Below, in pieces: positions 2,920 through 61,913 of a stretch of DNA of 64,000 bases. The stretch lies in assembly GCA_018240895.1 (NCBI GenBank), contig JAFEEX010000001.1, positions 33,210-97,209 on the forward strand. Reading direction: 5' to 3'. The notes under the pieces were generated by a model. The model had not been told where the DNA came from. It did not search any database and saw only the letters and a list, made by a program, of their open reading frames with translations. This DNA is from Pseudomonadota bacterium. GTDB lineage: Bacteria; Pseudomonadota; Alphaproteobacteria; Sphingomonadales; Sphingomonadaceae. How positions within the stretch are numbered: the stretch's first letter is position 1; every line of letters starts with the position of its first letter. The position numbers were made by a program, and so were the translations under genes.

Positions 2920-3804
2920 GTGGCCATTCGCCGTCTCCCTCCCCTTCGCGCGATCGAGGCCTTCGTGCGGATCGTCAGGCTGGGCAGCGCCCGCGCCGCC
3001 GCCGATGAACTGGGGCTAAGCCCCTCGGCATTGTCGCGGCGGGTTTCCGCGCTTGAGGATTTTATCGGCAAGCGGCTGTTCACCCGCCAGCATCAGGCGA
3101 TGAAGCTGACTGATGAAGGCCACGCCTTTTACGACGCGGTCAGCCCGAAATTTGATGAGCTGGCCGCTGCGGTTGAGGGGCAGGTGGAGGATTCCAAGGT
3201 TCTGCGCCTGCATCTGGGGGTATTGCCGCTGTTCGGCACCCAGCGCCTGTTCCCGCGCCTGCCCGAACTGCGCAAACAGCAGCCGCGCCTGCATATCGAT
3301 ATCGATACCAGCCCACACCTGCTTGCCCGGGTTGGCGACACGCTGGATGCGGCGATCATCCTGTCAAGCCAGCCGGATGCGTCGTATCATTCGGTTCGGC
3401 TGGATCACAACCGGGTCTTCGCCTTTACCTCGCGCGCGGTGGTTGATGAAATCGGCACCGATCCGGACGAACAGGTGCTGTCCCGCCAGACCTTTCTGAT
3501 CCACACCGAAATGCCGGAAAGTTTCATTGCCTGGAAACAGGCGCTGAACATGCCAAAGCTGGAGCCGGCTGCGATCGACCATTTCGATTCCGGCCAGATA
3601 ATTCTTGAAGCGGCGGCCAACGGCCTTGGCATTGCCATCATGCATGACGATCACTTTTTGCGCGCCCATGATCAACGGCTGGCAAAGCTTTTCGATGTCG
3701 AGGTGGAAAGCCCCTATTCCTACTGGTTCGTCTGCCGCCCCCACGCGCTTGAATTGCGCGCGGTGCGGATTTTCAACGATTGGATCATCAAGGCGGGGCT
3801 TTAG
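2920..3804 (+). CDS. LysR-family transcriptional regulator (GcvA-like)
   Basis: A 294-residue LysR regulator. It has an N-terminal winged helix-turn-helix at about 6-65 (PLRAIEAFVRI...SPSALSRRVSALE) and a periplasmic-binding-like effector domain from about 90 to the end. The start is GTG 2920, only 5 bp after corC, so it is probably co-transcribed with phoH-ybeY-corC. That is unusual for a regulator, which is normally divergent from its target. The recognition helix and the PPLRAIEAF opening resemble GcvA/AmpR-type members. No divergent target is present, so its regulon cannot be inferred. Confidence 0.88.
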   Translation: MAIRRLPPLRAIEAFVRIVRLGSARAAADELGLSPSALSRRVSALEDFIGKRLFTRQHQAMKLTDEGHAFYDAVSPKFDELAAAVEGQVEDSKVLRLHLGVLPLFGTQRLFPRLPELRKQQPRLHIDIDTSPHLLARVGDTLDAAIILSSQPDASYHSVRLDHNRVFAFTSRAVVDEIGTDPDEQVLSRQTFLIHTEMPESFIAWKQALNMPKLEPAAIDHFDSGQIILEAAANGLGIAIMHDDHFLRAHDQRLAKLFDVEVESPYSYWFVCRPHALELRAVRIFNDWIIKAGL

Positions 3805-3821
3805 CGTTTGGTCCAGCCGGT

Positions 3822-3827
3822 TATGAT
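3822..3827 (+). promoter_or_regulatory. -10 box TATGAT, leaderless geometry
   Basis: TATGAT ends 6 nt before the ATG at 3834, which would place transcription initiation at or next to the start codon. It is one of nine such sites in the window. Confidence 0.5.
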
Positions 3828-3833
3828 CCGGCC

Positions 3834-4532
3834 ATGACCAAGCGATTCGCCCTTACCGCTCTGCTTGCCGCCACCGCCCTGCTGGCCGGCAGCGTCCACG
3901 CCGCCGCGCCCAAAAAGCCGCTGGCCAAACCCCGGGCCGCCGCGCCTGCGCCCAGGCCCGCGCCGCTGCCCGATACGGTGCGCGTGGCGATGGTCACCGC
4001 GCTGGGGACAATCGAGCTGGACCTTGATCACAAGCACGCACCGGTCACGGTTGAAAACTTTATCCGCTATGTCGATGCGCGGAAATTTGACGGGATGCCG
4101 TTCTACCGGGCGATGCGGCTGGACTGGGGCACCCAGCCCAACGGGCTGATCCAGGCCGGGTTGCAGGCCAACCCCGCCAAGGTGTTCAAGCCGATCGCGC
4201 ACGAGCCGACCGATGTAACCGGCATCAGCCACAAGGCGGGAACAATCTCCATGGCGCGCTATGCCCCGGGGACGGCAATGGCCGATTTTTCGATCCTGCT
4301 GTCAGACCTGACCAGCCTGGATGCCGATCCCAAATCGCCCAATCCCGATACCCAGGCCGGCTTTGCCGCCTTTGGCCATGTTGTGTCTGGCATGGATGTG
4401 GTGCGGAAAATCTGGGATTCGCCGCTCTCCCCCACCAAGGGCGAAGGGCCGCTGAAAGGCCAGATGCTCGATCCGCCGGTCAGGGTGCTGACGGTCCGGC
4501 GGGTAGCGATACCGCCCGTCCCTGCGCAATAG
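3834..4532 (+). CDS. Exported cyclophilin-type peptidyl-prolyl cis-trans isomerase
   Basis: A 232-residue protein with a clear Sec signal (MTKRFALTALLAATALLAGSVHA) followed by a Pro/Ala/Lys-rich linker (about 23-50). The cyclophilin-like domain runs from about 54 to 225, so it acts in the periplasm. The catalytic-loop region reads F-Y-R rather than the usual F-H-R, and the QxGGD/GxxG core is weakened, so catalytic efficiency may be low. The start at 3834 begins the signal peptide and sits 6 nt after a TATGAT box with no Shine-Dalgarno. It converges on the cytosolic cyclophilin ppiB, with hairpins between. Confidence 0.88.
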   Translation: MTKRFALTALLAATALLAGSVHAAAPKKPLAKPRAAAPAPRPAPLPDTVRVAMVTALGTIELDLDHKHAPVTVENFIRYVDARKFDGMPFYRAMRLDWGTQPNGLIQAGLQANPAKVFKPIAHEPTDVTGISHKAGTISMARYAPGTAMADFSILLSDLTSLDADPKSPNPDTQAGFAAFGHVVSGMDVVRKIWDSPLSPTKGEGPLKGQMLDPPVRVLTVRRVAIPPVPAQ

Positions 4533-56540: not shown

Positions 56541-57662
56541 GTGGCTCGCAAATTTCTCTACTTCATAGCGCTGTGCATCGTCATTTATCTGGCGGGCCGG
56601 ACCGCATTGCAATTCTATCCCGAACAACTCACCCGAATCAGCTTTACCCCCAGCGGCGGCTTTGAGCCCGAGCCGGCGCTGGCCGCCAATGCCTATGCCG
56701 ATCCGGCGATGTGGCTGGCAAGCCCGGCGCTTGGCGAGAAAAGCCCCGCGGCCTGGCGCCCGGACGGGCTGACTGAAGACGGGCTGACTGAAGACGGCCC
56801 GGTGCTGAACGTGCCGGTGTTTTTCGTCCACCCCACCAGCTACCTCAACAAGGCGCACTGGAACGCCCCACTGGACGATGCACCGGCCCGCGCCATCGCA
56901 GAAACGATGATCCGGGGCGAAGCGAGCGCATTCAATCGCTCCACCCAGATCTGGGCGCCGCGCTATCGCCAGGCAACGATCGGCGCCTTCGTTTCGGACA
57001 AGCCCGAAGCACGCCAGGCGCTTGATCTGGCCTATCGTGACGTGGCCGAGGCATTCGGCCAGTTCATCGCCGCGCTACCGCATGGGCAGCCCTTCGTGCT
57101 CGCCGGGCACAGCCAGGGCAGCTATCACATCAAGCGGCTGATGCAGGAACGGATCAAGGGCACCCCGCTCGCCAAACGGGTGGTGGCAGTCTATGCCATC
57201 GGCTGGATCGTCGACCGGAATCGTGATCTGCCCGCCATGGGGCTGCCCGCCTGTGAGCGACCCGACCAGACCGGCTGCGTCATCAGTTACCTGTCATTCG
57301 GCGATCGGGCTGACACCACGATGATGCGCAGTGCCTTTGCCCGGTTTGCCGGATCAGCCGGGGCGACGGGCGACCAGCCGGCGATCCTGTGCTCCAATCC
57401 GTTGACCGGCGGCACGGGCGGATCGGCCCCAGCCTCTGCCAACCGCGGCGCCCTGGTGCCCAATGTGGATATGACGGCCGGACGGATTGTCCCCGGCTAT
57501 GTCGGAGCAGCCTGCGCGCCTGATGGCACGCTGCGAATCGGTGCTGGTCCCGATATCGGCCCCTATGTGCTGCCCGGCGGCAATTATCACGTCTATGACT
57601 ATCCGCTGTTCTGGGGCAACCTCAGGTCTGACTTCCAGGTGCGGGCGCAGGCATGGAAATAG
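56541..57662 (+). CDS. DUF3089 family alpha/beta-hydrolase-like protein
   Basis: A 373-residue protein with an N-terminal membrane anchor (about 6-26, FLYFIALCIVIYLAGRTALQ) and a large hydrolase-like domain. The Ser motif is LAGHSQGSYH. A sequence of about 190 residues with the DUF3089 pattern follows (VFFVHPTSY, AFNRSTQIWAPRYRQ, GTGDRADTTMM-like SFGDRADTT). The substrate is unknown. A 15-bp direct tandem duplication (56766-56795) makes GLTEDGLTEDG. The start is GTG 56541. Its end overlaps ruvX by 10 bp. Confidence 0.85.
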   Translation: MARKFLYFIALCIVIYLAGRTALQFYPEQLTRISFTPSGGFEPEPALAANAYADPAMWLASPALGEKSPAAWRPDGLTEDGLTEDGPVLNVPVFFVHPTSYLNKAHWNAPLDDAPARAIAETMIRGEASAFNRSTQIWAPRYRQATIGAFVSDKPEARQALDLAYRDVAEAFGQFIAALPHGQPFVLAGHSQGSYHIKRLMQERIKGTPLAKRVVAVYAIGWIVDRNRDLPAMGLPACERPDQTGCVISYLSFGDRADTTMMRSAFARFAGSAGATGDQPAILCSNPLTGGTGGSAPASANRGALVPNVDMTAGRIVPGYVGAACAPDGTLRIGAGPDIGPYVLPGGNYHVYDYPLFWGNLRSDFQVRAQAWK

Positions 57663-58126
57663 TCACCGCCAATGCCGGCGATTTCCGCGCCGCGCTGCCC
57701 GGCGCCGGGGCGCTGATCGGGCTTGATCTGGGCACCCAGACCATCGGCACCGCCTTTTGCGACGCCGGCTGGCGGTTCGCCTCGCCCGGCAAGACATTGA
57801 AGCGCGGCAAGTTTGGCGCGGACAAATCCTTACTGGCCGCGCTGATTGCCGAGCGCAGCATCAAGGGTGTCGTTATCGGCCTGCCGCTCAACATGGATGG
57901 ATCGGAAGGCCCGCGCAGCCAATCGAGCCGCGCCTATGCCCGCAATCTGGCCGCACTGGGCCTGCCGATCCTGCTGTGGGACGAGCGCTGGTCCACCGTC
58001 AGCGCCGAGGGCGCGCTGATCGCTCAGGACATGAGCCGCGCCAAGCGCGCCGCGCGCATCGACGCAGCCGCCGCGGCGGTAATCCTTCAGGCAGCGATTG
58101 ACGCATTGGCGGGTGGGTTCGCCTAG
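57653..58126 (+). CDS. ruvX: Holliday junction resolvase RuvX (YqgF)
   Basis: A 157-residue RNase H-like protein of the YqgF/RuvX family, implicated in 16S rRNA 5'-end processing and recombination. The catalytic Asp is in the G-L-D-L-G-T-Q-T-I-G motif (about 23-32), with VVIGLPLNMDGSEGPRSQ and WDERWSTVSAEGAL next. Asp in DAAAAAVILQ completes the active site. Start overlaps the DUF3089 gene by 10 bp. Confidence 0.94.
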   Translation: MEIVTANAGDFRAALPGAGALIGLDLGTQTIGTAFCDAGWRFASPGKTLKRGKFGADKSLLAALIAERSIKGVVIGLPLNMDGSEGPRSQSSRAYARNLAALGLPILLWDERWSTVSAEGALIAQDMSRAKRAARIDAAAAAVILQAAIDALAGGFA

Positions 58127-58132
58127 ACTCTC

Positions 58133-59047
58133 CTATCCAGCTTGGAGCATCGCGAGTTCTTTGCGCCGCACTTTGGCTTCCATTTCAACCAAAAGGCTGC
58201 CCGACTCCTCGGCCTCGCGCCACAAGGCGTCCTTCATGGCCGGGTCTGCTTCTCGCGCGGCCAAAGCGTCCCATGCTGCCAGACGCAACCGGTCGCTGGG
58301 GTGGCGGTGGGCAAAGCGGTGACCAAGATCGATCGCCTCGTCGCTTCCCAGGCCGATCGCCACCTTCAGCAGGGCCTCGCTCGGCGCGGGCGAAATGATG
58401 GTGCCAACCCGGCGCATCTCCAGATCGAAACGGTATTGATCAAGCCAGCCCTGGACTGCAGCCATGTGCATTACATTAAGCGAGACTGACAGGGAATCAG
58501 CAGGAAACTGCGCATGAACATCAAGGTGGGCGCGATAATGCAGTATTTTGCCTTCCTCCAGCCGCGATCGTTCGATGAAGCGCAGCGACGGCACTGGCTC
58601 GCCTTGCCAGCCGACGACTTGTTCGTAATCGTATTCATAGTAATCGCTCCAGTAGCCCGGCCCGAAATATCCAAGCGTCAGAAAATCGAAATTGTGATCA
58701 TGCGCCATACCATAGGCGAATGGACCGCCGCCTGATGCGCGTATCGCATAGTCATTTTCTGCTGGCCAAAGGTTGGCGCGAATGAAGAACTGGCCGCTGG
58801 GCGGAACCAGCATGATGACCTGCGGGCCATAGCCACTTGTCTGCGCATCATCACGGTGGCGCGCGGCAAGGCGCTCTACAAGAACGTCGCCAAGGAAAGT
58901 GCGGTTGTTGCCCAGCCGCCGCAACCACAGCGCGGCATGGTTCAGGCTATTCTGGTCACGGGGATCAAAGCCATGCTCGCCAATCGCCTCGCTCACTTGT
59001 TCCAGCGTTCCGGCGGCCGGGTCAGTCACCGTGATCAGGCTCGGCAT
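58133..59047 (-). CDS. Protein A of an unrecognised peptide-linked operon (cupin-like + helical C-terminus)
   Basis: A 304-residue protein with no signal peptide, of a family I do not recognise. The middle (about 75-200) looks like a beta-barrel: ASGGGPFAYGMAHDHNFDFLTLGY carries H-D-H (His116/118), and a second cluster of His170, 174 and 178 lies in ILHYRAHLDVHAQFPADS. This arrangement recalls cupin or cysteine-dioxygenase-like metal sites. The C-terminus (about 225-295) reads like HEAT-type helices. Its N-terminus overlaps protein B by 13 bp. By-eye alignment (G...H-R...H/Q...PA...S/L) suggests it is a paralogue of B. Confidence 0.7.
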   Translation of the reverse strand: MPSLITVTDPAAGTLEQVSEAIGEHGFDPRDQNSLNHAALWLRRLGNNRTFLGDVLVERLAARHRDDAQTSGYGPQVIMLVPPSGQFFIRANLWPAENDYAIRASGGGPFAYGMAHDHNFDFLTLGYFGPGYWSDYYEYDYEQVVGWQGEPVPSLRFIERSRLEEGKILHYRAHLDVHAQFPADSLSVSLNVMHMAAVQGWLDQYRFDLEMRRVGTIISPAPSEALLKVAIGLGSDEAIDLGHRFAHRHPSDRLRLAAWDALAAREADPAMKDALWREAEESGSLLVEMEAKVRRKELAMLQAG

Positions 59048-60009
59048 GGTTCGATCTCCGAAAGTTGGGGATAGGTTGCAACCAGTTGCGCCCGTAGCGC
59101 TTCAGCGGGGATCCGAAGCGGATCATCCGCTCGCCCAGCAACCCGGCAAAGGGCGGCGAAGCCTTCGGCGGTATCGAGCGCCAGGCATTCACGCAGCACC
59201 TGCCAGCGCATCGCGGGACTTGCGTGTTCTTCAACCATAGCCGCCAGCAGCGGTGCGGCATCGCGCCGGCCCATGCGCGCCAACAGCGACGCGGCAAGTT
59301 CATGCTGACTGTCTGAAGACCTGGCAGCTGCTTGCTGCAACAAGGCACCGTCCTTCAACGCATATTCACACGCTGTCGCACAATCACCGCTGTCACGCTG
59401 CAACTTAATCAAAACATGGGTTGCCGGAACCCTAAGATAAATCTGCGCCTCATGCGAGCCGATCCGGTGCGCCAAGGCACCTGGCGCAACCCAGCATGAC
59501 TCTCGCACCAGCTCTGCGCGGTCAGAAAGCCGGGCTGCTACTCTGACCCGATCAACCTGGGCGGTCCCGGCCAGCACATGTTCCCAGGTCTCGCAAGGAT
59601 TGAAGCAGACGCTGTGAGGATGGGGGCGGCGATCAAGCCCAGCCCCGTCAATCGCCAGCAGCGTCAGCGCTGTCGTGTCCCGCTGCAAGATAGTCAGAGT
59701 AGTCAGGACACTGTCGGTGCTGTGCCGCAGAGGAGACTGCGCCAACGGATCGCGCGCCAGTTCTACCAGGAGCGGACCAATCAAGTCTGCTGAAAAGCGC
59801 GTTGCAAAATCGCCCGGTTCGAACAGCGCCGAAAGATAGGGCAGATCACCTAGATCAGCTCCGTTGTGAAGCTTGGTCAACTCTTGATGGGCGGTGCGGC
59901 CCGACGCACCACTGCGCCACCGCTCCACGGCCTTGCCCATCCGGTCCGGCAAGTGGCGCTGCGCGTTGCCGTTGCCGCGCAGCGCCGTCAATTCTGGGCG
60001 AACCAGCAT
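59035..60009 (-). CDS. Protein B of the same operon (putative paralogue of A)
   Basis: A 324-residue soluble protein of unknown family. A central segment (about 130-205, SVCFNPCETWEHVLAGTA to HRIGSHEAQIYLRVPATHVLIKLQR) aligns by eye with the cupin-like part of protein A but lacks the H-D-H pair. A C-terminal helical region (about 235-315) resembles the end of A (H-A/P-S...R...L-A). Its seven cysteines are conspicuous. GAAGG precedes ATG 60009. It starts 15 bp after the peptide gene. A catalytic/non-catalytic pair is a possible reading. Confidence 0.7.
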   Translation of the reverse strand: MLVRPELTALRGNGNAQRHLPDRMGKAVERWRSGASGRTAHQELTKLHNGADLGDLPYLSALFEPGDFATRFSADLIGPLLVELARDPLAQSPLRHSTDSVLTTLTILQRDTTALTLLAIDGAGLDRRPHPHSVCFNPCETWEHVLAGTAQVDRVRVAARLSDRAELVRESCWVAPGALAHRIGSHEAQIYLRVPATHVLIKLQRDSGDCATACEYALKDGALLQQAAARSSDSQHELAASLLARMGRRDAAPLLAAMVEEHASPAMRWQVLRECLALDTAEGFAALCRVAGRADDPLRIPAEALRAQLVATYPQLSEIEPCRA

Positions 60010-60024
60010 CCCGCCTTCGCTCGC

Positions 60025-60177
60025 TTACGGATTCATTACGCTATAAACAAACACCATCACCGCGATCACCGAATTGTCGGTGGCAGTGGCCTGGGCCGGC
60101 GTGGCCAGGCTGCCGAATATGCCAGTAAGCGTGTTCAGGTCAGGCAGCGACGCCAGTTCGATAATCGGAAGATGCAT
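60025..60177 (-). CDS. 50-residue peptide, first gene of the three-gene unit
   Basis: A small peptide beginning MHLPIIELASLPDLNTLTG, with strong AAGGAG 7 nt upstream of the ATG. The N-terminal half is amphipathic (ELASLPDLNTLTGIFGSL). A small, Ala/Thr-rich middle (ATPAQATATDNS) leads into a hydrophobic stretch, VIAVMVFVYSV (about 37-47), and it ends MNP. There is no cysteine and no known leader motif. Its size, position ahead of two larger genes and strong ribosome binding site are those of a RiPP precursor or small membrane peptide, but no maturation enzyme is recognisable. Confidence 0.65.
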   Translation of the reverse strand: MHLPIIELASLPDLNTLTGIFGSLATPAQATATDNSVIAVMVFVYSVMNP

Positions 60178-60259
60178 GGTGATCTCCTTGTTTGGCGCAA
60201 GACCCCTTGTCCTGCCCTTCCAGTCTTCGCGGCACACCCGTCCAAGCGGAAATTAAAAC

Positions 60260-60265
60260 ATTGTA
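60260..60265 (-). promoter_or_regulatory. -10-like TACAAT for the peptide operon
   Basis: On the reverse strand TACAAT lies in an AT-rich island (60250-60266) inside the 119-bp gap divergent from the thioesterase gene. It would give a leader of roughly 75 nt. No good -35 is seen. Confidence 0.4.
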
Positions 60266-60296
60266 ATCGCCACCCGCTGCCCGCAGAGGAGGCGGC

Positions 60297-60773
60297 ATGA
60301 CCACGCCGAAGGACCCGACCAGCCTTTACGAAACGCCGCCGGAATTTGTTTTCGATCCGGCCCGGGCCGCGTCGATGATGACCCGCCATGGCCACGGCGG
60401 ATGGCTGGGGCTGACCTATCGTGGCCACGGAGAGGGATGGTTCGAACTGGAACTGCCCTGGCGTGAGGAACTGGTCGGCATGGCCGAAACCGGGGTGCTG
60501 GCATCAGGGCCGATCATCAGCTTGATGGACAACGCCACGTCGATGGCGGTCTGGACCCGCACTGGCCGGTTCGTTCCCCATGCCACACTGGACCTGCGGG
60601 TTGACTATATGCGCGCGGCGGTGCCCGGACAGGCCCTGATCGGCCACGGCGAATGCTACAAGCTGACCCGGACAATCGCCTTCATTCGCGGTGTCGCGCA
60701 TGATGGCGATGCCGATGATCCGGTGGCTCACGTCATCGGCACTTTCATGGCGACCCACGGAGCCTATCTGTGA
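60297..60773 (+). CDS. Hotdog-fold (PaaI/YigI-type) thioesterase 1
   Basis: A 158-residue hotdog-fold acyl-CoA thioesterase-like protein. The central helix region GPIISLMDNATSMAVWTR contains the catalytic Asp of PaaI-type enzymes (D in MDNA). VPHATLDLRVDYMRAAVPG is the beta-strand that follows. GAGGAGG upstream of ATG 60297 is the ribosome binding site. Paired with a second thioesterase overlapping at its end; acyl substrate unknown. Confidence 0.88.
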   Translation: MTTPKDPTSLYETPPEFVFDPARAASMMTRHGHGGWLGLTYRGHGEGWFELELPWREELVGMAETGVLASGPIISLMDNATSMAVWTRTGRFVPHATLDLRVDYMRAAVPGQALIGHGECYKLTRTIAFIRGVAHDGDADDPVAHVIGTFMATHGAYL

Positions 60774-61168
60774 ACGATCTGGCCCTGCCCCCCTATGCCG
60801 ATGCGTTGGGCATCGCGGTTGACCGGGATGAAGACGGCAATCCGGTGATGTTTGTCGATTTCTCACCCCGAATCCTGGGCCGCCCGGGATTTCTCCACGG
60901 CGGCGCGCTGAGCGGCCTGATGGAAATGGCCGGCTTTGCGGCGCTGCGAGCCGAACTGGCCCGCCGGGGTGAGGCGGGGAAGATCAAGCCGGTCAATATC
61001 CAGGTGGAATTCATGCGCGGCGGCACCGAACAGCGCACCTTCGCGATGGGCAGGGTAACGCGCGCCGGACGCCGGGTGGCGCTGGTCAATGTCGAGGCCT
61101 GGCAGGATGACCGCGCCAGGCCGATCGCGCTGGCGCAAATGAAGTTTCTGCTCAACCCCGCCGGATGA
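60770..61168 (+). CDS. Hotdog-fold (PaaI-type) thioesterase 2
   Basis: A 132-residue PaaI-like thioesterase. It has the landmark H-G-G-A-L in FLHGGALSGLMEMAGFAAL and the VNIQVEFMRGG strand. The start is GTG 60770, overlapping the TGA of thioesterase 1 (GTGA), so the two are coupled, perhaps as a heteromer. Its end overlaps cysG on the opposite strand by 17 bp. Confidence 0.88.
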   Translation: MNDLALPPYADALGIAVDRDEDGNPVMFVDFSPRILGRPGFLHGGALSGLMEMAGFAALRAELARRGEAGKIKPVNIQVEFMRGGTEQRTFAMGRVTRAGRRVALVNVEAWQDDRARPIALAQMKFLLNPAG

Positions 61169-61913
61169 TCACGACCATCCCTGGGGGTGGCTCCACGCCC
61201 TGCCCCGGCGCAAACGACCGGCGCACCGCATCGGCCCGGGCGCGATTGAGGATCGCAGGTGAAACGCGCGGATCGTGCAGCACAAGGTCAGCCATGCCCA
61301 GCCAGTGTGCCTGACGCAGCGTCAGGTCATCAGGGTCATCGCTGGACAGGATAATTTCATTGACTTGTGAAGGGGTTGAATTGCCCTGTTCAAGCCAATT
61401 CCCGATCTTGTCAGCCGACTGTTCGTGCATCGGATCAAGCGCTGCCCCCTCGGCCAGCGCCGCGTCAAGCACGCGCCGCCGCTCCGCCGGATCGGGCCAG
61501 CGCTGCCGCATTCGGTCACGCGCGCTGGCCAGACCGGCGGCGAGCGCGCCCAGAGAGGTGGGCAGCAGCGTTTCAAGCCGCAGCCGCAGCGCCTTGGCCA
61601 GGCCGGCGGAAGCACCGCCCGTCCCCACGGCGATCAACACCGGATCACGGTCCAGAATGCTCGGCACGGTGAAATCGCACAGATCCGGGCGATCCGTGAC
61701 ATTGACAAGCACCCCCCGCGCCTTGAGCGCGGCGGCGACCTCTTCCGGATTTTCCAGCGCAACGAAAGCCAGCCGTGCGGCGCCATCATCCATAGCGACC
61801 ACCCGCGCTCCGGCCCGCTCAACCAATCGCCGTTTGGCCTCTGCCGCTTCGCCCGCGCCCAGCACGATCACCGGCTGGCCAGCGATGCGATGGAACAGGG
61901 GAAGGCTGTGCAT
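61152..61913 (-). CDS. cysG: Precorrin-2 dehydrogenase/sirohydrochlorin ferrochelatase (CysG N-terminal part) with truncated SUMT end
   Basis: A 253-residue protein. Residues about 1-110 are an NAD-binding Rossmann domain (VIVLGAGEAAEAKRRLVERAGARV), which oxidises precorrin-2. The dimerisation and ferrochelatase part runs from about 110 to 175. The tail (about 185-245: VNEIILSSDDPDDLTLRQAHWLGMADLVLHDPRVSP) is recognisable as the start of a uroporphyrinogen methyltransferase (SUMT) domain, cut short. So siroheme synthesis requires a separate cobA-type methyltransferase elsewhere. Confidence 0.87.
   Translation of the reverse strand: MHSLPLFHRIAGQPVIVLGAGEAAEAKRRLVERAGARVVAMDDGAARLAFVALENPEEVAAALKARGVLVNVTDRPDLCDFTVPSILDRDPVLIAVGTGGASAGLAKALRLRLETLLPTSLGALAAGLASARDRMRQRWPDPAERRRVLDAALAEGAALDPMHEQSADKIGNWLEQGNSTPSQVNEIILSSDDPDDLTLRQAHWLGMADLVLHDPRVSPAILNRARADAVRRSFAPGQGVEPPPGMVVIIRRG

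What the first reader, a model, noticed from the sequence alone, without database searches (positions are those of the whole stretch)
58133..60177. Unrecognised three-gene unit: a 50-residue peptide plus two apparently paralogous cupin-like/HEAT-like proteins
Seen: a strong-RBS 50-aa peptide gene (60025-60177), then a 324-aa protein 15 bp later (B), then a 304-aa protein overlapping it by 13 bp (A), all on one strand with an AT-rich promoter-like gap. By-eye alignment pairs A 157-191 with B 167-203 (G...H-R...H...Q...P-A...S/L) and the C-terminal helical regions. A keeps H-D-H and a second histidine cluster like a metal site, while B has lost the H-D-H, so the pair looks like an enzyme plus a non-catalytic partner. 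Inference: a RiPP-like or small membrane-peptide system with an unusual maturation pair. I recognise none of the three families.
Basis: partly seen in the sequence, partly recalled or inferred. Interest (0 to 1): 0.8.

Follow-up and report, generated by a model that had tools for sequence, protein, structure and literature searches.

The report
Peptide cassette with paired cupin proteins
A 50-residue peptide gene sits ahead of a probable iron-dependent oxygenase and a look-alike partner without the metal site, a set conserved among related bacteria that looks like an undescribed way of making a modified peptide, although no modification has been seen yet.

Summary
The three-gene unit is real. 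Protein A (304 aa) matches in 104 of 298 sampled same-family genomes, and B lies in the same locus in 106 of 110 distinct cases. The peptide is conserved and under purifying selection (97 pairs, median dN/dS 0.25, all below 1). A is modelled as helices, a cupin and HEAT repeats, with thiol dioxygenases as best structural matches. Three histidines expected to bind iron are nearly invariant in 197 sequences. B has the same architecture without conserved ligands. Outside the family, 7 of 19 genomes or records have the pair near a HlyD/MacB-type exporter, and two of these carry two and three precursor candidates. Best reading: a RiPP-type system in which A, helped by B, oxidises a hydrophobic core peptide. 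In the window's clade the cassette stands alone, often near ruvX, with a conserved upstream DNA element and a 5'-UTR hairpin. No searched family library describes A or the peptide. The modification, export and function are inferred.

The parts
60025..60177 (-). P: precursor-like peptide gene, 50 aa; leader block LASLPDLNTLTGIFGS, variable linker, hydrophobic block DNSVIAVMVFVY
   Evidence: ORF; candidates ahead of B in 122 of 123 distinct B loci, motif profile on 95; median dN/dS 0.25 over 97 pairs
59035..60009 (-). B: 324 aa, helical N-terminus, cupin barrel without conserved metal ligands, C-terminal HEAT repeats; proposed partner or pseudo-oxygenase
   Evidence: model pLDDT 94.2; Foldseek top 50 are mostly cupins incl. 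3-HAO and CDO; HEAT_2 E 2e-4, below Pfam cut-off; no conserved His at the ligand places
58133..59047 (-). A: 304 aa, helical N-terminus, cupin barrel with H116-D-H118 and H178, C-terminal HEAT-like helices; proposed 3-His iron oxygenase
   Evidence: model pLDDT 92.8, pTM 0.84; Foldseek top matches thiol dioxygenases, E 5e-7; ligands in 194-196 of 197 sequences
60249..60266 (-). upstream DNA element TTACAATGTTTTAATTTC, about 88 bp before the peptide start; candidate operator or promoter element
   Evidence: at least 13 of 16 bases in 74 of 122 loci, 0 in five base-shuffled sets; the only match with up to 2 mismatches in the held 3.17 Mb genome, 89% complete
60197..60215 (-). 5'-UTR hairpin GCAGGAC-AAGGG-GTCTTGC just before the ribosome-binding site
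   Evidence: stem of 7 bp or more in 57 of 119 upstream regions vs 10-22 in ten base-shuffled sets; 4 covarying pairs by RNAalifold, weak total energy; for the window's own copy the folding z-score is only -1.1
60184..60189 (-). AAGGAG ribosome-binding site of the peptide gene
   Evidence: sequence

Best explanation
The unit is a minimal RiPP-type (ribosomally made, then enzyme-modified peptide) cassette. P is the precursor. Its N-terminal block (LPxIDLSxLPDLDTLTGxFGS) acts as leader, and its C-terminal hydrophobic block is the substrate core. A is a non-heme iron oxygenase of the thiol-dioxygenase fold, with three histidine ligands, that oxidises a residue of the core. B is its paralogue-like partner that lost the metal site and serves to bind or present the peptide. 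Both carry HEAT repeats that could form the docking surface. In some distant bacteria the B-A pair works with one to three precursors and a HlyD/MacB exporter. In most sphingomonad loci seen here the cassette is reduced to three genes, so the product there may act inside or at the envelope of the cell. Shown: gene order, conservation, and selection on P. Predicted from models: the folds. Inferred: iron, oxidation, leader binding, roles.
For: Conserved P-B-A order. Purifying selection on P. Leader block and core block separated by a variable linker. Thiol-dioxygenase fold of A with H116, H118 and H178 in 196, 196 and 194 of 197 sequences and R90 and W94 in 194 and 196. Same architecture in B without ligands. 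HlyD + MacB-type ATPase + MacB-type permease within 8 kb in 7 of 19 genomes or records outside the family and in 1 of 12 widened sphingomonad loci, with Pfam support for genes of L150, L236, L245 and L251. Two tandem precursor candidates in L150 and three in L245. ABC-2 type transporters beside the pair in L150 and L236.
Against: No modification, peptide product or activity was observed. No exporter or protease gene was seen beside the window's copy. Of the 19 outside genomes or records, I judged the precursor convincing in 11, weak in 3 (L248, L252, L254) and absent in 5 (L246, L247, L249, L250, L251), and three of those five are among the seven with an exporter; in L246 and L247 (one genus) the exporter genes run away from B and A. 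B was not found by its profile in 3 of the 19 (L240, L250, L252). Candidate picking favoured hydrophobic ends, so hydrophobicity in distant loci is not independent evidence. A lacks the Ser-His-Tyr pattern of thiol dioxygenases, and most window-type peptides have no Cys (4 of 81 do), so the reaction is probably not the textbook one. The A-B sequence match is carried by the HEAT parts; the cupin parts alone give E 0.011.
Confidence: 0.65

Rival explanations
1. P is a small resident membrane peptide, not a natural product, and A/B form an oxygen- or redox-sensing pair that tags or controls it, in the manner of the N-terminal cysteine oxidases that act as oxygen sensors.
For: Window-type cassettes mostly stand alone, with ruvX within 5 kb in 58 of 110 family loci (many held with only 1.5 kb flanks) and 70 of 81 named loci. 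The core is hydrophobic and conserved rather than variable within the clade. Plant and animal cysteine oxidases are among A's structural matches. A conserved upstream DNA element and a 5'-UTR hairpin suggest tight control.
Against: Some distant cassettes come with HlyD/MacB-type exporters, and two with several precursor candidates. The hydrophobic stretch is about 11-13 residues, short for a membrane span. No N-terminal Cys in P.
Confidence: 0.2
2. A and B are non-catalytic: a cupin/HEAT scaffold pair that binds and chaperones a hydrophobic peptide, with the metal only structural.
For: B shows that the architecture can persist without ligands. HEAT repeats are typical binding surfaces.
Against: Near-perfect retention of the three His plus R90, W94, D176 and N191 in A. 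The one clear ligand loss, L045 (R90 to A and H178 to R), goes with a peptide whose core is diverged.
Confidence: 0.1
3. A toxin-antitoxin or self-immunity module in which P is a membrane-active toxin and B/A neutralise it.
For: Short hydrophobic peptide next to two partner proteins; ABC-2 type transporters beside some distant copies.
Against: No PADLOC match; exporters and multiple precursor candidates in some relatives point to secretion; in the named loci mostly one chromosomal neighbourhood rather than mobile spread.
Confidence: 0.05

Closest known systems
Thiol dioxygenases (cysteine dioxygenase, 3-mercaptopropionate dioxygenase, ADO/PCO N-terminal cysteine oxidases)
   Same: Cupin fold; HxH plus a later His; best Foldseek matches of A.
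   Different: No Pfam match to any such family; C-terminal HEAT-like helices; Ser-Asn-Met in place of Ser-His-Tyr by sequence pattern; encoded with a peptide and a ligand-less partner.
Darobactin-type RiPP clusters (DarA precursor, DarBCD tripartite exporter, DarE radical SAM)
   Same: Precursor gene next to the modifying enzyme; some distant relatives of this cassette have a membrane-fusion protein, a permease and an ATPase, the same parts as DarBCD (passages seen in PMC11559228; clusters).
   Different: No radical SAM enzyme was seen; the proposed maturase is a cupin pair; the window's copy has no exporter beside it.
Cupin-like hydroxylase PbsQ in a biphenomycin-like RiPP cluster
   Same: A cupin-like oxygenase that hydroxylates a residue of a ribosomal peptide (passages seen in PMC12257519).
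   Different: PbsQ is described there as related to a JmjC-domain protein and works with an MNIO, an arginase and a B12 radical SAM enzyme; A has HxH and a ligand-less partner.
MNIO (DUF692) enzyme plus partner protein systems such as bufferins and TglHI
   Same: Short precursor, iron enzyme and a partner protein in one operon (recalled).
   Different: MNIOs are TIM barrels (recalled); A and B match no MNIO or partner model and are cupins by model.

Membership tests
RiPP biosynthetic system | short precursor gene co-conserved with modifying enzymes | tested here: met
   P candidate ahead of B in 122 of 123 distinct B loci, 95 with the G-x-F-G-S type motif; B with A in 106 of 110; dN/dS below 1 in 97 of 97 pairs
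RiPP biosynthetic system | leader region distinct from core region | tested here: met
   two conserved blocks with a variable linker on 95 sequences; which block is leader is inferred
RiPP biosynthetic system | post-translational modification of the precursor | not testable with these tools
   needs mass spectrometry
RiPP biosynthetic system | export or maturation genes nearby | tested here: inconclusive
   exporter set near 7 of 19 outside loci and 1 of 12 widened sphingomonad loci; none seen beside the window's copy
Thiol dioxygenase | cupin fold with three His ligands | tested here: met
   predicted structure, metal not observed
Thiol dioxygenase | Ser-His-Tyr second-shell triad (triad named in the start of the abstract of PMC10966181) | tested here: not met
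   A has S189-x-N191-x-M193 in the corresponding strand by sequence pattern; N191 in 194 of 197. The placing rests on recall of the family's sequence; no residue-level structural alignment was available
Thiol dioxygenase | match to a curated sequence family of the group | tested here: not met
   no such Pfam or NCBIfam hit
Thiol dioxygenase | thiol substrate | tested here: inconclusive
   only 4 of 81 window-type peptides have a Cys; 7 other peptides in the same set have a GG-x-C type motif
2-oxoglutarate/JmjC-type cupin hydroxylase | HxD/E...H ligand set (recalled) | tested here: not met
   second ligand position is His in 196 of 197, the other a gap
MNIO (DUF692) system | match to MNIO or partner models | tested here: not met
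Anti-phage defence system | match to a known or candidate defence protein | tested here: not met
   PADLOC search of A, B and their L150 relatives

The most novel reading that the evidence does not exclude
A new RiPP class whose maturase is a thiol-dioxygenase-fold enzyme with HEAT docking repeats, working with a catalytically dead paralogue, that oxidises a non-thiol residue (Met, Tyr or an aliphatic residue) in a hydrophobic core; in sphingomonads it has been domesticated from an exported, multi-precursor system into a stand-alone cassette with its own operator and leader hairpin.
Probability: 0.45. Interest if true: 0.85.

Novelty: new variant of a known kind. Interest (0 to 1): 0.72.

Why it matters
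If true, it adds an undescribed maturase architecture to peptide natural-product biology. It would give a 3-His cupin enzyme a peptide substrate that in most cases has no thiol, which would widen the known chemistry of that fold. It also makes about a third of the sampled genomes of one bacterial family (104 of 298), and exporter-linked clusters elsewhere, directly minable with a simple search. The stand-alone sphingomonad form raises a testable question: what does a single, conserved, apparently tightly regulated modified peptide do for its host?

Tried and rejected
Known-family filing: Pfam, NCBIfam, PHROGs and PADLOC searches gave no family for A, B or P beyond a sub-threshold HEAT_2 in B and a chance-level DUF693 for A (E 0.4) (P was not put to PADLOC). 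Precursor candidates from other loci gave nothing but a chance-level hit. Sequence search against solved structures gave no cupin for A or B, only chance-level or HEAT/alpha-repeat matches.

Mobile origin: no phage record matched the A relative of the Alteromonas plasmid (the window's own A was not put to the phage set, and viral contigs was not scanned). One plasmid record matched the window's A, that Alteromonas plasmid.

Structured RNA: no Rfam match at the gathering threshold in 57500-61500. A sigma-70 consensus scan found no promoter and only chance-level terminators.

Regulon idea for the upstream element: rejected for the own genome (one match with up to 2 mismatches). In 21 same-genus genomes the exact form (up to 1 mismatch) was in 3, all three just ahead of the peptide, while 13 of the 21 have A. 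So the exact form is not in all carriers.

Simple peptide-type/A-tree link: Cys-bearing precursors do not form one clade on the A tree, so a single switch of substrate is not shown; several branches of that tree are long and many forks are open.

Double-glycine leader idea: the precursor candidates of L242, L243 and L042 look like double-glycine leaders by eye (label recalled), but no model supports this.

Literature: searches for cupin or HEAT repeat with RiPP terms, cysteine dioxygenase or thiol dioxygenase with RiPP, 3-His cupins with peptide substrates, and Sphingomonadaceae or Novosphingobium with RiPP showed no title or abstract start describing this system. They cover only the held open-access library, and one search listed 15 of 23 papers. 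One search was a darobactin exporter search. In two papers I saw passages; the others only as listings with the start of the abstract.

Full report
Observation.

Conservation. With A as query, 104 of 298 sampled genomes of the same family have a match, in 45 of 96 genera. Among 110 distinct A sequences in loci of that family (fragments included), 106 have a B match in the same locus. Of the other four, L199, L203 and L209 are cut at contig ends and L206 holds only a C-terminal part of A. The named loci (the best 80 of 374) hold 81 distinct A sequences, all with a B match, though in L109 and L111 no single intact B frame was found. A peptide candidate was picked ahead of B in 122 of 123 distinct B loci, L109 and L111 having been left out. 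The picking rule favoured a stop near the B start, a ribosome-binding site, a hydrophobic end, an ATG and an LPDLD-like string, so those traits are partly built in. It chose evident wrong frames in a few truncated or odd loci (L083, L099; L042, where one search shows the better frame). Of the 122, 95 carry the G-x-F-G-S type motif used for the profile, which was not part of the rule.

The peptide. In the window's clade the profile shows M-N-L-P-K-I-D-[LIV]-S-x-L-P-D-L-D-T-L-T-G-x-F-G-S, then a variable linker, then D-D-x-[IV]-[VI]-x-x-M-[VT]-[FY]-x-Y-[ED] and a variable tail. The window's own peptide departs at the second D (N) and at the last acid (S). Over 97 same-length pairs of 70-97% identity with usable synonymous change, the median dN/dS is 0.25 and all are below 1, so the frame is under selection as a protein. 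Other clades keep a similar leader but other cores, for example VGG-x-x-C followed by aliphatic residues (7 peptides), or purely aliphatic ends in loci L032, L043, L143 and L144.

Protein A. The AlphaFold2 model (pLDDT 92.8, pTM 0.84) has N-terminal helices, a beta barrel and C-terminal HEAT-like helices. Foldseek against the PDB puts thiol dioxygenases first (4tlf, E 5e-7; further down mercaptosuccinate dioxygenase, cysteine dioxygenase, PCO and ADO). TM-scores normalised by the target are 0.55-0.62 for the first five hits, so this is a shared fold, not close kinship. In 197 sequences His116 and His118 are present in 196 each, His178 in 194 (one Arg, two gaps), Arg90 in 194 and Trp94 in 196. 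The Arg in place of His178 is in L045, which also has Ala at 90 and a diverged peptide core: a decayed cassette. The Ser-His-Tyr triad of the thiol dioxygenases is not kept by sequence pattern (S189, N191, M193), so A is not filed as a member of that family.

Protein B. Its model (pLDDT 94.2, pTM 0.86) has the same order of parts. Its Foldseek list is mostly cupins, including 3-hydroxyanthranilate dioxygenase and cysteine dioxygenase; the first hit is a transcriptional regulator (1y9q). No His is conserved at the ligand positions; the only columns with more than 30% His are 96 and 225. Cutting the profiles shows that the HEAT parts carry this (E 5e-8), while the cupin parts alone give E 0.011 (probability 4), against 0.21-0.86 for six column-shuffled controls. 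Common descent of the cupin parts is therefore likely from architecture but not proven by sequence.

Relatives outside the family. A is rare elsewhere. In a phylum sample of 398 genomes, 15 matched and 2 of these were outside the family. In a class sample of 385, 5 matched and 1 was outside. In two outside families, 8 of 196 and 10 of 198 genomes matched. I fetched wide stretches for 18 of these 19 outside genomes (G1375 was left out) plus the Alteromonas plasmid, 19 genomes or records in all; some stretches end early at contig ends (10-13 kb). B was found by its profile in 16 of the 19, not in L240, L250 and L252. Seven have a HlyD-like protein, a MacB-like ATPase and a MacB-like permease within 8 kb of A (L150, L236, L238, L245, L246, L247, L251); L246 and L247 are of one genus. 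Pfam confirms the parts in L150 and L236, the ATPase and permease in L245, and a Yip1 protein in L251. L150 and L236 also have an ABC ATPase and an ABC-2 type permease directly after A; the L236 permease match lies below the Pfam cut-off. L150 has two precursor candidates and L245 three in tandem. L238 and L239 cover one genome with three B-A pairs around one exporter. One sphingomonad, G286, has two B-A pairs, each with a precursor candidate, followed by HlyD and MacB-like genes, the permease match being weak; it is the only one of 12 widened sphingomonad loci, chosen mostly among diverged ones, with the set. Against the model: by my judgement of the candidates the precursor is convincing in 11 of the 19 outside genomes or records, weak in 3 (L248, L252, L254) and absent in 5 (L246, L247, L249, L250, L251), and in L246 and L247 the exporter genes are transcribed away from B and A.

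Control elements. About 88 bp before the peptide start lies TTACAATGTTTTAATTTC (window 60249-60266). Matches of at least 13 of 16 bases occur in 74 of 122 upstream regions and in none of five base-shuffled sets; on those 74 the profile is sharp and most distances to the start lie between 82 and 102 bp. Some divergent loci show a TTACA-N4-TGTAA palindrome, which suggests an operator. In the held own genome (89% complete) the pattern TTACANNNNTTTAATTTC with up to two mismatches occurs only here. In 21 same-genus genomes the exact form occurs in 3, each just ahead of the peptide, while 13 of the 21 have A. Between this element and the ribosome-binding site lies a hairpin. Stems of 7 bp or more are found in 57 of 119 upstream regions against 10-22 in ten base-shuffled sets. 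The mean folding z-score is -1.45, with 74 of 119 below -1. RNAalifold finds four pairs, all with two-sided changes, though with a weak total energy of -0.53.

How it most likely works (inferred). P is made, B and A bind it through leader and HEAT surfaces, A uses iron and oxygen to oxidise a residue of the hydrophobic core, and in exporter-linked clusters the product is cleaved and pumped out. No exporter or protease gene was seen beside the window's copy, so its product may use a general exporter or stay in the envelope. Which residue is changed is unknown; the Met (82 of 95) and Tyr (87 of 95) of the core are candidates.

Novelty. No model of the searched libraries covers A or P, and nine searches of the held open-access papers showed no description in titles or abstract starts. 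The closest functional parallels are the PbsQ cupin-like hydroxylase (PMC12257519, passages) and darobactin clusters with their tripartite exporter (PMC11559228, passages). I rate it a new variant of a known kind: RiPP-type logic with an undescribed maturase pair.

Noticed in passing
L045 (G288) 3305-4216: A decayed cassette in a same-genus genome: A has lost Arg90 and His178 and its peptide core is diverged.
   Followed up: partly
L238/L239 (G1154 contig 1, about 345000-360000): Three B-A pairs around one Yip1-HlyD-MacB exporter set, with an ABC ATPase between two of the pairs.
   Followed up: partly
L242 and L243, about 130 bp ahead of B: Precursor candidates that look by eye like double-glycine leaders (ELTLEDAEFVSGGG), in two genomes whose flanks hold what look by eye like NRPS genes; no family model matched the candidates.
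   Followed up: partly
L240 and L244: Short forms of A (233-234 aa) that end before the HEAT part, with related precursor candidates (LGNFDV...LDPVFVIPIII) in two different genera.
   Followed up: no
L248, ahead of 8734: A weak precursor candidate that begins with an LPDLD string and holds two similar FIFAA stretches.
   Followed up: no
L258, L255 and L264, upstream of P: Genes that look by eye like sigma or anti-sigma factors next to some sphingomonad cassettes; uncertain.
   Followed up: no
L031 (G255) and L035 (G087): Second, diverged cassettes next to an EngB/YsxC-like GTPase gene (by eye; before P in L031, after A in L035) rather than near ruvX.
   Followed up: no
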